Part shown: one piece after another, positions 17,381 to 41,348 of the stretch
How positions within the stretch are numbered: the stretch's first letter is position 1
How the letters are laid out: every line of letters begins with the position of its first letter
From: Pseudomonas sp. GOM6
GTDB taxonomy: Bacteria; Pseudomonadota; Gammaproteobacteria; Pseudomonadales; Pseudomonadaceae
Direction of reading: 5' to 3'
Assembly (NCBI RefSeq): GCF_029537485.1
Contig: NZ_JARPUS010000002.1
Location: 186,001-250,000, forward strand
DNA length: 64,000 bases
Made by a program: the position numbers and the translations under genes
Notes under the pieces: model-generated
What the model saw: the letters and a program-made list of their open reading frames with translations, nothing else
The model's database searches: none
What the model was told of the DNA's origin: nothing

Positions 17381-17481
17381 TATTTGATTGTGTCGGGTTC
17401 ACGCAACCCCTGGCCCTCATCCTGCATAGCCGTTGTCATGAAATGTGGCCAGTCTGAGTCGTCACCCCAAGGAGTGTGCTG

Positions 17482-17949
17482 ATGAATCTGAACAGAGTCG
17501 ATGAGCTGCGTGGCGGCATGCATGAATTGGCCCAGTCGCTGGGTAATCTGCTGGTGGAGTCGTTCCACTACCTGGCGCTTTTCGCCATCGGCGGGATCAC
17601 GGCCTGGGCCTCGGTAGTGGCCTTTCTCGGCATGCTGGAGAAGGGCCATATCACGGTGGATGACATCCTGTTGCTGTTCATCTACCTGGAGCTGGGGGCC
17701 ATGGTCGGTATCTACTTCAAGACCAACCACATGCCGGTACGCTTCCTGATCTATGTAGCGATCACTGCGCTGACCCGCCTGCTGATTTCCGATGTATCCC
17801 ACCACCACCGTCCGGACATGGGGGTGGTTTATGTGTCGGGGGCGATTCTGCTGTTGGCGGTGGCGATTCTGGTGGTGCGTTTTGCCTCCTCACGCTTTCC
17901 TTCGGTGCAGGCGCCGGTCCGTCTGGGGCGCAGTGCCGAAGAAAGCTGA
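17482..17949 (+). CDS. psiE: PsiE-family phosphate-starvation-inducible membrane protein
   Basis: A membrane protein of 155 residues with four predicted helices (around 30-52, 65-82, 90-110, 118-138). The LLVESFHYLALFAIGGITAWASV, YLELGAMVGIYFKTNHMPVRFLIYVAITALTRLLI and conserved His cluster SDVSHHHRPD are PsiE features. Function is unknown even in E. coli, where it is induced by phosphate starvation. The ATG at 17482 has GGAG 7 bases upstream; a GTG at 17476 sits too close to that site. Confidence 0.88.
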   Translation: MNLNRVDELRGGMHELAQSLGNLLVESFHYLALFAIGGITAWASVVAFLGMLEKGHITVDDILLLFIYLELGAMVGIYFKTNHMPVRFLIYVAITALTRLLISDVSHHHRPDMGVVYVSGAILLLAVAILVVRFASSRFPSVQAPVRLGRSAEES

Positions 17950-17975: not shown

Positions 17976-18614
17976 TCAGCTACTGCGTAACACCAGCTGC
18001 CGCTCAATCCTGAGCGGCCCCTGTGGTATTGCCGCCTCGTAGCTGAGCAACTGCACTACACGCACGGGCAGGTGCAGGCGCTGAAGGTCCTGCATGGGCT
18101 GGGTGCGTCTGTGCCAGTCACTGGCGCTGGCGGCACAGCGATACAGGCCGAGTGTGAGGTGCGGGACATAGGGCGCCTGGCGTACCTCTGGGGTGATGCC
18201 TGCCAGTGCCAGGCGTAGCTGCTGCAGTGGGGACTCGGCATCTACACGCAGAAATGCCGCGCTGGCGAAGCTGTCGAGCCCGCCTATGAGCAACTCGAAC
18301 GGCGCCAGTTGCAGGCGGGCGAGCGCTTCGTATTGGGCGTCCAGCTGAGCCAGGGTTATGTCGTCGTCATGTCGGGCGTTGGCGCAGGGGAAGCCGCAAA
18401 CGAACAGAGTGATGTGAGCCTGGCGCTCGCCAGCGGGCTGTAGCCAGTCGCCGAGCAGCTCGCGGGCAGCTTGCGTGCGCGATAGCACTGCCGGGCATTC
18501 CACGGGGATCGACCATAACGCATAGCGCTGCCGACCGCGGCGCCACTGTGGATGGTCGAGCAGTTCACAAGGCAGCAATTGATCGGGTGCATGGATCGGG
18601 TCGGAGAGCAACAT
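17976..18614 (-). CDS. 2H phosphoesterase-superfamily protein (LigT/2'-5' RNA ligase-like)
   Basis: A protein of 212 residues with two HxT motifs: His67-I-Thr69 (HITLF) and His152-L-Thr154 (HLTLGLY), the defining catalytic pair of the 2H superfamily. Such proteins cleave cyclic phosphodiesters in RNA or nucleotides; the substrate is unknown. It converges with psiE and is divergent from the PA2779-like gene, 62 bases away. Confidence 0.85.
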   Translation of the reverse strand: MLLSDPIHAPDQLLPCELLDHPQWRRGRQRYALWSIPVECPAVLSRTQAARELLGDWLQPAGERQAHITLFVCGFPCANARHDDDITLAQLDAQYEALARLQLAPFELLIGGLDSFASAAFLRVDAESPLQQLRLALAGITPEVRQAPYVPHLTLGLYRCAASASDWHRRTQPMQDLQRLHLPVRVVQLLSYEAAIPQGPLRIERQLVLRSS

Positions 18615-18676: not shown

Positions 18677-19075
18677 ATGCGTGCACATCCCTTCATGCGT
18701 TTTCTTGCTGCCACCCTGGCAGCTCTGCATCTCGTTCTGTTTGCCCACCTGCCGATGGCCAGCGCCGCCATGCTCGGCACGCCTCAGGTGCTGCAGGAAC
18801 ACCAGCAGCAAGTCGACCGACAACAGCTGCGTGCCATGCTCGATGATCAGCAGGTGCAGGAGAAATTGGCCGATCTGGGAGTGGATCGCGCCCAGGTGGA
18901 GACACGCATCGATAGCCTGACGCCCGCTGAACTGGCCCAGTTCAATCAGCAGCTGTCCGAAGAGCCTGCTGGCGCTGGCGTGGTGGGCATCATCGTGCTG
19001 TTCCTGGTGATCTTCATCATCACCGACATGCTCTGCGCGACGGACATCTTCTCCTTTGTGAAGTGTGTGCGTTGA
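18677..19075 (+). CDS. PA2779-family protein (leader plus C-terminal membrane helix)
   Basis: A protein of 132 residues. Residues 1-31 look like a signal peptide (FLAATLAALHLVLFAHLPMASA). A charged helical part follows, with LTPAELAQFNQQL, then EEPAGAGVVG and a strong membrane helix IIVLFLVIFIITDML near 103-118, ending in a short tail with two Cys. I recall it as the uncharacterised PA2779 family, always next to a C39-like peptidase gene. Here its TGA stop overlaps or abuts the peptidase start, so the two are coupled. The pairing suggests that the peptidase acts on this protein, but this is untested. Confidence 0.82.
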   Translation: MRAHPFMRFLAATLAALHLVLFAHLPMASAAMLGTPQVLQEHQQQVDRQQLRAMLDDQQVQEKLADLGVDRAQVETRIDSLTPAELAQFNQQLSEEPAGAGVVGIIVLFLVIFIITDMLCATDIFSFVKCVR

Positions 19076-20028
19076 TCGGGCGGGTTATTGGCCTCGCCTT
19101 GGTAATCCTGCTGGCCGGCTGTGCCGGTCGGCAGGTACAGCTGCCAGCCAGCAGCGAGTTGTTGCCGCCGCGTGCGGAACTGGTCGAAACGCCATTCTTT
19201 CCCCAGGAGGACTATCAGTGCGGCCCGGCGGCGCTGGCGACCATGCTGGTGCAGCGCGGCGTGCGCACCTCGCCCGAGGCGCTGTTGCCGGGCGTTTACC
19301 TGCCGGGGCGCAAGGGCAGTCTGAAGGTCGAGTTGGTGGCAGCGGCGCGTCAGCAGGGGCAACTGGTCTATCCATTGCGCCCGCAGCTGAAGGCCGTGCT
19401 GGAACAGATCGCGGCGGGCAATCCGGTGCTGGTAATGCAGAACCTGGGGCTCGACTGGTATCCGCAATGGCACTTCGCCGTGGTGGTCGGCTACGACCGC
19501 TCACGCCAGGAACTGGTACTGCGCTCGGCGACCCACAAGCGCTGGACTACCGATTTCACGGCGTTCGACCGCACCTGGGCACGCGCCGAGCGTTGGGCGG
19601 TGCTGACCTTGCCGCCGGATCGCCTGCCGGCCGAGCCGCAGCTGGGTGCCTGGCTGCAGGCGGCCAGCGATCTGGAGCAGACCGCCCAGCATGCGGCCGC
19701 CGCAACGGCTTATCGCACCGCCATCGCACATTGGCCAGACGAGGCGTTGCCCGGCTTTGCTCTGGCCAACCTGCACTATGCCCAGGGTGACCGGGCGGCG
19801 GCCGAGCTGGCGTTACGCAGCAGTTTGGACCGGCGCGGCGATTTCGCGGTGGGTTGGTTCAACCTGTCCGAGTTGCTCAACGAGCGTGGCTGCGTGGCTC
19901 AGGCGCAGGCGGCGCGTAGCTGCGCGCAGCGCCTCGCGCCGCAGGACAAACGCCTGATCGCGCCGCTGTCCACGGCCGGCTCGTCATCAGGAGCCTGTCA
20001 GTCATTGCCGCGCTGCCCGGCGCCCTGA
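19063..20028 (+). CDS. PA2778-family C39-like cysteine peptidase lipoprotein with TPR repeats
   Basis: About 321 residues. A lipoprotein signal ends in LLAGC (Cys20), so it is anchored to the membrane. The peptidase part (40-180) has PFFPQEDYQCGPAALATML with the oxyanion Gln and nucleophile Cys, and WHFAVVVGYD with the catalytic His. The C-terminal part (195-300) has TPR-like helices (AAATAYRTAIAHWPDEALPGF...). The start is uncertain: GTG at 19063 overlaps the upstream gene by 13 bases, while TTG at 19072 would form a TTGA stop-start overlap. Substrate unknown. Confidence 0.82.
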   Translation: MCALIGRVIGLALVILLAGCAGRQVQLPASSELLPPRAELVETPFFPQEDYQCGPAALATMLVQRGVRTSPEALLPGVYLPGRKGSLKVELVAAARQQGQLVYPLRPQLKAVLEQIAAGNPVLVMQNLGLDWYPQWHFAVVVGYDRSRQELVLRSATHKRWTTDFTAFDRTWARAERWAVLTLPPDRLPAEPQLGAWLQAASDLEQTAQHAAAATAYRTAIAHWPDEALPGFALANLHYAQGDRAAAELALRSSLDRRGDFAVGWFNLSELLNERGCVAQAQAARSCAQRLAPQDKRLIAPLSTAGSSSGACQSLPRCPAP

Positions 20029-40800: not shown

Positions 40801-41348
40801 CGGCCTGGCTGGCGCCGCGCCTGCGGCTGCTGCTGGGCATCGCCGGGCTGATGCTGGTGCTGCAGGTGCTCAATAGTCTGAGCGGCAACGCCCTGAATGC
40901 CTGGGGCGTGCTGCCCCGGCATGTTGGCAGCCTGCCGGGCATTCTGTTTGCGCCCTGGCTGCACGCCGGTTGGTGGCATCTGCTCGGCAACCTGTCCGTC
41001 CTGTTGTTGCTGGCCTGGCTGGCCATGCTCGATTCGCCCCGGCGCTTTCTCGCCGCCAGCGCTTTCATCATCCTCGGCAGCGGGTTGCTGGTGTGGCTGT
41101 TGGCCCGGCCGGGCATGCACCTGGGCGCCAGCGGCTGGCTGTTCGGCCTGTGGGGGTTATTGCTCGGCCGTGCCTGGTTTGAGCGCAGCCTGGGCAGCCT
41201 GCTGATCGCCGTATTGGTGTTGCTGCTATATGGCGGCTGGTGGTGGGGGTTGCTGCCGCAGCGCGGCGTGTCCTTCGAATACCACCTGGCCGGCGCTTTC
41301 TGTGGCGCGCTGTACGCCGCACTGACCCGTACCCCAAGGAGAACCTGA
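40797..41348 (+). CDS. Rhomboid-family intramembrane serine protease
   Basis: A membrane protein of 183 residues with six predicted helices. The rhomboid hallmarks are HAGWWHLLGN, the catalytic GASG with Ser112 and the catalytic His163 in YHLAGAF. Length fits the minimal rhomboid core. It begins with a GTG inside the stop of the ATPase gene (GTGA), so translation is coupled. It cleaves membrane-spanning substrates; candidates in the same operon include the flotillin and the NfeD-like protein, as inference. Confidence 0.88.
   Translation: MTAWLAPRLRLLLGIAGLMLVLQVLNSLSGNALNAWGVLPRHVGSLPGILFAPWLHAGWWHLLGNLSVLLLLAWLAMLDSPRRFLAASAFIILGSGLLVWLLARPGMHLGASGWLFGLWGLLLGRAWFERSLGSLLIAVLVLLLYGGWWWGLLPQRGVSFEYHLAGAFCGALYAALTRTPRRT

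What the first reader, a model, noticed from the sequence alone, without database searches (positions are those of the whole stretch)
18677..20028. C39-like peptidase coupled to a leader-and-helix partner protein
The peptidase gene begins at or inside the stop of the PA2779-like gene. C39 peptidases usually cut after a Gly-Gly or Gly-Ala leader. The partner has LTPAELAQFNQQL followed by EEPAGAG just before its membrane helix, which loosely recalls a double-glycine leader. The hypothesis is that the lipoprotein peptidase releases the C-terminal hydrophobic part from its helical leader. The residue at -4 (Pro or Ala) is not the usual Leu, so the case is weak but testable.
Basis: inference. Interest (0 to 1): 0.65.

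Follow-up and report, generated by a model that had tools for sequence, protein, structure and literature searches.

The report
Periplasmic C39 peptidase with dedicated partner
A pair of neighbouring bacterial genes that almost always occur together appears to encode a lipid-anchored protease and the small membrane protein it probably cuts at a conserved Pro-Ala-Gly site, a layout that resembles the maturation of peptide toxins and signals but outside the inner membrane.

Summary
In detail: at 18677-19075 lies a DUF6627/PA2779-family gene and, overlapping its stop, at 19063-20028 a PA2778-family C39-like lipoprotein with TPRs. Relatives strengthen the idea and correct its details. In 398 Pseudomonadota genomes the 40 with one gene are the 40 with the other in full length, adjacent in 42 of 42 places. 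Cys53 and His137 are invariant. The partner has a signal peptide, helices, a break at Pro-Ala-Gly, a membrane helix and a conserved tail. Pro97 is the most conserved column (47 of 48 representatives); the motif is P-A-G, not Gly-Gly. The helix before it has hydrophobics at -4, -7, -11, -14, close to a double-glycine leader. A short peptidase clade without TPRs has lost Cys and His (46 and 45 of 46 rows, one event). Best explanation: PA2778 cuts PA2779 after P-A-G at the periplasmic side of the membrane. Cleavage is inferred, not shown. Both families have curated names; I found no paper on their function. FapD, a comparable exported C39 peptidase, had no known substrate in the papers seen, so this pair makes that kind of question testable.

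The parts
18677..19075 (+). PA2779-family (DUF6627) gene, 132 aa, candidate substrate
   Evidence: NF033919 141.1 bits
18677..18766 (+). signal peptide, residues 1-30, AxA site (Ala28, Ala30)
   Evidence: Ala30 46 of 48 and Ala28 34 of 47 representatives; helix 5-23 in model; cleavage inferred
18767..18964 (+). helical domain, residues 31-96; last helix 83-95 is the leader-like recognition helix (hydrophobics at -14, -11, -7)
18965..18973 (+). Pro97-Ala98-Gly99, predicted cleavage site
   Evidence: helix break in model
18977..19030 (+). hydrophobic (transmembrane) helix, residues 101-118
19022..19072 (+). conserved C-terminal tail, residues 116-132 (family pattern T-D-x-x-G-x-T-D-V/I-F-P-F)
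19063..20028 (+). PA2778-family C39-like cysteine peptidase lipoprotein (start GTG 19063 or TTG 19072)
19111..19122 (+). lipobox L-A-G-C, lipidated Cys20
   Evidence: Cys20 in 54 of 56 representatives, other 2 gapped
19162..19623 (+). C39 domain, residues 34-187
19219..19221 (+). catalytic Cys53
   Evidence: 118 of 119 rows, 1 gap
19471..19473 (+). catalytic His137
   Evidence: 119 of 119 rows
19642..19935 (+). TPR-like helical repeats, residues 194-291

Best explanation
The two genes form a precursor-plus-peptidase operon. PA2779 is exported by Sec, its signal peptide is removed, and its C-terminal hydrophobic helix holds it at the membrane with the helical domain in the periplasm. PA2778, a lipid-anchored periplasmic C39-like cysteine peptidase, grips the amphipathic helix before Pro97-Ala98-Gly99 much as double-glycine peptidases grip a leader, and its Cys53/His137 cut after Gly99 (or one residue later), separating the soluble helical domain from a peptide of about 33 residues made of the hydrophobic helix and the conserved tail. 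Shown here: the architecture (by sequence and prediction), the invariant catalytic residues, the conserved site, the linkage. Inferred: that the cut happens, where exactly, the topology, and which fragment is the product.
For: Of 398 genomes, the 40 with DUF6627 over cut-off are the same 40 that have full-length PA2778 (profile matched to position 235 or beyond of 255); 42 of 42 places are adjacent on one strand, read from the coordinates; 19 and 19 of 149 within the genus, same set. 79 of 80 loci fetched by the peptidase alone carry a DUF6627 gene, and clustering of ORFs within 4 kb finds nothing else that recurs widely outside Pseudomonas. Of 119 aligned rows Cys53 118 (1 gap), Gln48 118 (1 gap), His137 119. 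The C39 domain model (pLDDT 95.2) matches 3erv Z 16.7 (2.2 A, 151 aligned), ComA 3k8u Z 15.9 (2.1 A, 133) and the leader-bound double-glycine protease 6mpz Z 15.9 (2.3 A, 135). P-A-G is the most conserved stretch and lies at a helix break; large hydrophobics at -4 0.69, -7 1.00, -11 1.00, -14 0.90 of representatives, against Val-4/Leu-7/Leu-12 in the LahT complex (PMC6363468, passages). 1 to 9 residues lie between Gly99 and the column of Val102. In 6 loci two DUF6627 genes lie beside one peptidase, P-A-G (once P-V-G) kept in both copies, as expected of duplicated substrates. Short clade without the partner: Cys to Ser/Gly 46 of 46 rows, His to Arg/Gln 45 of 46.
Against: No cleavage data. The motif is A-G, not the G-G/G-A/G-S of known C39 sites. 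The window's own -4 residue is Glu; in LahT150 Asp or Lys at -4 gave non-substrates. No Asp stands at the usual spacing after the His: residue 153 is Leu in 116 and 155 Ser in 115 of 119; Asp145 is conserved (116) but nearer. P-A-G could be only a structural break between helix and membrane; the partner's model is of low confidence (pLDDT 70.3, pTM 0.30). The lipoprotein's +2 residue is Ala in 42 of 54 and never Asp, which by the recalled +2 rule suggests the outer membrane, far from an inner-membrane substrate. Loss of catalysis in the short clade is one event (monophyletic, support 0.995), and two of its 45 genomes also have the intact pair elsewhere. One locus of 80 (L099) has the peptidase with no partner found beside it; genome G517 has an orphan partner but only dead C39 relatives. 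The co-occurrence P values treat related genomes as independent.
Confidence: 0.6

Rival explanations
1. PA2779 is a regulator or inhibitor of the peptidase, not its substrate: its helix and P-A-G loop sit in the active-site groove and keep PA2778 off until a signal arrives; the true substrate is elsewhere.
For: A matched, adjacent small partner fits an inhibitor as well as a substrate; P-A-G and the leader-like helix would be conserved either way.
Against: Two DUF6627 copies beside one peptidase in 6 loci and orphan DUF6627 genes elsewhere in genomes that have PA2778 (6 of 7 orphan genomes) fit substrates better; no third protein recurs widely beside the pair.
Confidence: 0.17
2. PA2778 acts as a scaffold: its C39 and TPR domains bind PA2779 without cutting it, as the C39-like domain of HlyB is thought to do for HlyA (PMC6363468, passages).
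For: TPRs are binding domains; no Asp at the usual spacing after the His.
Against: Cys53, His137 and Gln48 are invariant in the aligned peptidases, and a dead lineage exists to show what a non-catalytic version looks like.
Confidence: 0.1
3. The P-A-G plus membrane helix is a C-terminal sorting signal for a rhombosortase- or exosortase-like enzyme, and PA2778 does something else.
For: Motif, hydrophobic helix, basic end is a three-part layout, clearest in some short-tailed members (for example L088, L098, L106, L107).
Against: The genome has no exosortase match and no rhombosortase over its cut-off (best 60.7 of 84 bits); of five family sequences scanned at E up to 10 no sorting-signal model was listed; the matched partner is PA2778.
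Confidence: 0.05
4. Ordinary membrane-anchored pair: P-A-G is only a helix break, nothing is cut there, and PA2778 trims or repairs other envelope proteins.
For: Pro or Gly breaks before membrane helices are common (general knowledge); no biochemical data.
Against: Pro97 is the top column of the whole family and the hydrophobic positions before it keep their spacing while the length after Gly99 varies.
Confidence: 0.08

Closest known systems
Double-glycine (C39) peptidase domains of AMS/PCAT ABC transporters (LahT150, ComA, PCAT1)
   Same: Fold, Cys and His, conserved Gln, a helix with spaced hydrophobics before a small-residue site.
   Different: Lipoprotein with TPRs, not fused to an ABC transporter; no Asp at the usual spacing; A-G site instead of G-G; the partner has its own signal peptide and a membrane helix.
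FapD of the Pseudomonas Fap amyloid system (PMC5557850 and PMC6173800, passages)
   Same: Exported C39-like peptidase acting in the periplasm, catalytic Cys needed, encoded with its presumed clients.
   Different: FapD belongs to an amyloid export operon and its substrate is unknown in those papers; PA2778 is a TPR lipoprotein whose only widely recurring neighbour is DUF6627. The sequences were not compared.
NCBIfam PA2778_fam (NF033920) and PA2779_fam (NF033919, Pfam DUF6627)
   Same: The window's genes are members over the curated cut-offs.
   Different: Nothing; these are the families. No paper on their function was found; NCBI's own notes on the models were not seen.
GlyGly-CTERM/rhombosortase sorting signals (recalled)
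   Same: Small-residue motif before a membrane helix, cut on the outer side.
   Different: Different enzyme class; no over-cut-off rhombosortase in this genome.

Membership tests
PA2778 family cysteine peptidase (NF033920) | profile score over curated cut-off | tested here: met
   348.3 bits against 150
PA2779 family / DUF6627 | profile score over curated cut-off | tested here: met
   141.1 bits against 40; Pfam 125.6 against 27
C39-like peptidases | catalytic Cys and His, conserved Gln | tested here: met
   Cys53 118 and Gln48 118 of 119 (1 gap each), His137 119 of 119
C39-like peptidases | fold of the C39 domain | tested here: met
   3erv Z 16.7, 3k8u Z 15.9, 6mpz Z 15.9
C39-like peptidases | proteolytic activity | not testable with these tools
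   needs biochemistry
AMS/PCAT double-glycine peptidases | catalytic Asp after the His | tested here: inconclusive
   by spacing none: 153 is Leu in 116, 155 Ser in 115 of 119 (LahT His101/Asp117); no coordinates to check
AMS/PCAT double-glycine peptidases | fusion to an ABC transporter | tested here: not met
   321-aa lipoprotein; C39 and TPR matches only
AMS/PCAT double-glycine peptidases | partner with G-G, G-A or G-S site | tested here: not met
   P-A-G; in the register one later, position 99 is Gly in 113 and position 100 Ala, Gly or Ser in 99 of 116 rows, so not strict either
AMS/PCAT double-glycine peptidases | hydrophobic residues at -4, -7, -12 of the leader | tested here: inconclusive
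   -4 and -7 fit (0.69, 1.00); third is at -11, not -12 (0.12); the window itself has Glu at -4
Fap system (FapD) | fap operon beside the peptidase | tested here: inconclusive
   no widely recurring neighbour but DUF6627; no fap gene model was searched
GlyGly-CTERM / rhombosortase | rhombosortase over its cut-off in the genome | tested here: not met
   best 60.7 bits against 84

The most novel reading that the evidence does not exclude
A double-glycine-like maturation system moved outside the inner membrane: a Sec-exported precursor is cut by a lipid-anchored C39 peptidase at P-A-G, and the real product is the conserved hydrophobic C-terminal peptide of about 33 residues (helix plus T-D-x-x-G-x-T-D-V-F-P-F tail), made from a very highly transcribed gene and acting in the envelope or outside the cell.
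Probability: 0.22. Interest if true: 0.8.

Novelty: new variant of a known kind. Interest (0 to 1): 0.58.

Why it matters
Exported C39 peptidases lacked a known substrate in the papers seen: the 2017 FapD paper says its target is unclear and its class has yet to be characterised (PMC5557850, passages), and a 2018 review says the same of the substrate (PMC6173800, passages); later work was not seen. Here one such enzyme has one matched partner with one sharply conserved candidate site, which turns the question into a single experiment. A PA2779-family gene is also among those in the top 3% of expression by read count in all four samples of Pseudomonas stutzeri DSM4166 (PMC10155442, section 5 read), so the product of a very highly transcribed gene may be waiting for an explanation.

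Tried and rejected
My first guess that the short C39 matches in most Pseudomonas were FapD was wrong: they lie beside an FAD-oxidoreductase-like gene (label recalled from the sequence) and lack the catalytic residues.

Cleavage one residue later (Gly99 as -2): not excluded; it puts the near-invariant Pro at -4 and the hydrophobics at -5, -8, -12.

Neighbour genes as a clue to function: nothing but the pair recurs widely outside the genus. Promoter and terminator scan: nothing. PDB sequence search with the partner: only weak matches, best E 0.021; with the C39 part alone, none up to E 1; with the full peptidase, the 60 shown of 229 match in or around the TPR part. The partner's model was not used for a fold search because of its low confidence. 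No coordinates were available, so no docking and no structural check for a catalytic acid.

Literature: the searches gave no paper on the function of either family in the held library. Searches also listed papers that look unrelated by title and were not opened. One search, seen as a listing, gave none with the C39 term.

Full report
What is there. The partner gene runs from ATG 18677 to the TGA at 19073-19075; the peptidase frame opens with GTG 19063 or TTG 19072 and ends at 20028, so the genes overlap by 13 or 4 nt. The partner is a PA2779-family/DUF6627 protein, the peptidase a PA2778-family protein with a Peptidase_C39_2 match. The genome holds one DUF6627 match and one PA2778 match over cut-off; six weaker peptidase-profile matches (26 bits or less) cover only the C-terminal, TPR side of the profile.

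Anatomy of the partner. Residues 1-30 look like a signal peptide with an AxA site (Ala30 in 46 of 48 representatives under 70% identity, drawn from 116 aligned rows). The model, of modest confidence (pLDDT 70.3, pTM 0.30), has helices 36-55, 58-66, 71-80 and 83-95, a break at 96-100, a hydrophobic helix 101-118 and a tail without helix. The break is exactly Glu96-Pro97-Ala98-Gly99-Ala100. Pro97 is the most informative column of the family (47 of 48), Gly99 the ninth (45 of 48, the other 3 Ala), Ala98 the 28th (44 of 48). Mean relative entropy is 3.64 for P-A-G, 2.88 for the tail 116-129, 1.82 for the helical domain, 1.72 for linker and membrane helix, 1.35 for the signal peptide. The tail is therefore under strong constraint where present; 10 of 48 representatives did not pass my long-tail pattern, and several of these end shortly after the membrane helix, some in basic residues.

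The leader-like helix. Counting Gly99 as -1, large hydrophobics (V, I, L, M, F) are found at -4 in 0.69, at -7 in 1.00, at -11 in 1.00 and at -14 in 0.90 of the representatives, and 1 to 9 residues separate Gly99 from the column of Val102. [quoted passage not shown] The match is close but not exact (-11, not -12; A-G, not G-G). In the family it is Leu 27, Ala 10, Met 4 of 48; the window's Glu belongs to its nearest relatives (11 of 116 rows).

The peptidase. Lipobox Cys20 is present in 54 of 56 representatives (2 gaps). Of 119 aligned rows (the window, its copy L001 and one of two fragments of L011 included; the other fragment was too short and was dropped) Cys53 and Gln48 are kept in 118 (1 gap each) and His137 in 119. 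No Asp stands where the spacing of LahT would put it: residue 153 is Leu in 116, residue 155 Ser in 115 and Thr in 4. The model (pLDDT 95.2) has a C39 domain (34-187) and TPR-like helices (194-291). Best solved relatives of the C39 domain are 3erv (Z 16.7, 2.2 A, 151 aligned), ComA 3k8u (Z 15.9, 2.1 A, 133) and 6mpz, the leader-bound protease (Z 15.9, 2.3 A, 135); rows within 1 Z unit are tied.

Linkage. In 398 Pseudomonadota genomes 40 have DUF6627 over cut-off and one more a weak match. In the same 398, 47 match the peptidase profile at E 1e-20 and 41 over cut-off; of the 41 one (G261) is the short dead type, and the other 40 reach profile position 235 or beyond and are the same 40 genomes; of the remaining six, five are short Pseudomonas matches and one (G113) a different architecture. 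Reading the coordinates, all 42 DUF6627 places have the peptidase next to them on the same strand. In 149 genus genomes the 19 full-length sets are identical. Fisher P values (6e-56 and 2e-24) overstate the case because genomes are related. Of 80 loci fetched with the peptidase (best 80 of 100), 79 have a DUF6627 gene and one, L099, has none found; 30 of 30 loci L001-L030, fetched with DUF6627, have the peptidase, in L011 broken by a stop. Clustering the ORFs of the 80 loci (up to 4 kb each side) finds nothing but the pair recurring widely outside Pseudomonas, apart from shadow frames over the pair and synteny within a genus; the next protein-sized cluster with members outside the genus spans 13 loci, 3 of them not Pseudomonas (that output counts L076, a Pseudomonas, as outside). 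In six loci (L071, L075, L078, L084, L085, L091) two DUF6627 genes accompany one peptidase.

A natural control. Of the 130 genus genomes without the full pair, 124 have a short match to the peptidase profile (my reading of the best-E column). I fetched 46 rows of the short type (45 loci in 45 genomes; one locus twice), two of the genomes (G424, G488) being ones that have the intact pair as well. They are proteins of about 210-230 residues in which position 53 is Ser in 31 and Gly in 15, position 137 Arg in 41, Gln in 4 and His in 1, position 48 Gln in only 2. One further genome (G517) has an orphan DUF6627; the other 42 have no DUF6627 over cut-off, and none of the DUF6627 places lies beside a short copy. 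The short clade is monophyletic (support 0.995) and falls among the Pseudomonas peptidases, with a very weakly supported sister (0.015): a single event, suggestive but not a repeated test.

Orphan partners. Seven genus genomes have a DUF6627 protein with L-P-A-G-G (4 of 7) or close variants and no long tail, with no C39 gene in the stretches taken, which reach about 1.4 to 5 kb to either side; six of them also have PA2778 (P 1e-5, same caveat). They may be substrates in trans; the seventh, G517, has only dead C39 relatives.

How it most likely works. PA2779 is exported by Sec and anchored by its C-terminal helix; PA2778, lipidated and periplasmic, docks on the helix 83-95 and cuts after P-A-G. 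Shown: composition, conservation, linkage, intact Cys and His. Inferred: the cut, its exact bond, the topology and the product. A loose end is location: residue +2 after the lipid Cys is Ala in 42 of 54 and never Asp, which by the recalled +2 rule points to the outer membrane.

Comparison with the known. It works like a double-glycine leader peptidase but fails features that define the AMS/PCAT group (ABC fusion, G-G site), so I do not file it there. It resembles FapD in kind: exported C39, C38A abolishes secretion, target unclear (PMC5557850, passages; PMC6173800, passages); the two sequences were not compared. The pair has curated names, so it is known as a family pair, but I found no functional work. 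A PA2779-family gene of P. stutzeri DSM4166 is listed among 26 promoters chosen from 39 genes in the top 3% in all four samples (PMC10155442, section 5). In P. aeruginosa a transposon between PA2779 and the divergent PA2780 was studied for motility, and the authors ascribe the effect to PA2780 (PMC3985676, passages). A change in the PA2778 start codon is listed for P. aeruginosa clone CHA (PMC3697988, passage).

Verdict. Cleavage remains to be shown.

Noticed in passing
L119-L124, L132-L171, L180: A clade of about 210-230-aa C39-like lipoproteins in Pseudomonas that ends before the TPRs and has lost Cys and His (46 of 46 and 45 of 46 rows); L180 was seen only and looks the same. In the six loci with longer flanks (L119-L124) it lies beside an FAD-oxidoreductase-like gene (label recalled). 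Conserved dead enzymes, function unknown.
   Followed up: partly
L172-L178: Orphan DUF6627 paralogues with L-P-A-G-G or a close variant and no conserved tail, near a conserved block with a PHP-domain-like and a tryptophanyl-tRNA-synthetase-like gene (labels recalled), no C39 gene found in the stretches taken.
   Followed up: partly
L181 (G113:C319): A protein with TPRs before, not after, a C39 domain that keeps the Cys and His; no DUF6627 match in that genome.
   Followed up: no
L011: PA2778 gene interrupted by an in-frame stop next to an intact DUF6627 gene, in a genome with a second pair without such a stop.
   Followed up: no
window 40950-41318: Rhomboid-like match (32.9 bits to the rhombosortase model, below its cut-off).
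   Followed up: no
window 17476-17949 and 17976-18614: Upstream neighbours: a PsiE-family membrane protein (+) and a 2'-5' RNA ligase-like protein (-).
   Followed up: no
L179 (G517:C41): A second C39-like protein in G517 whose catalytic Cys position is also replaced.
   Followed up: no
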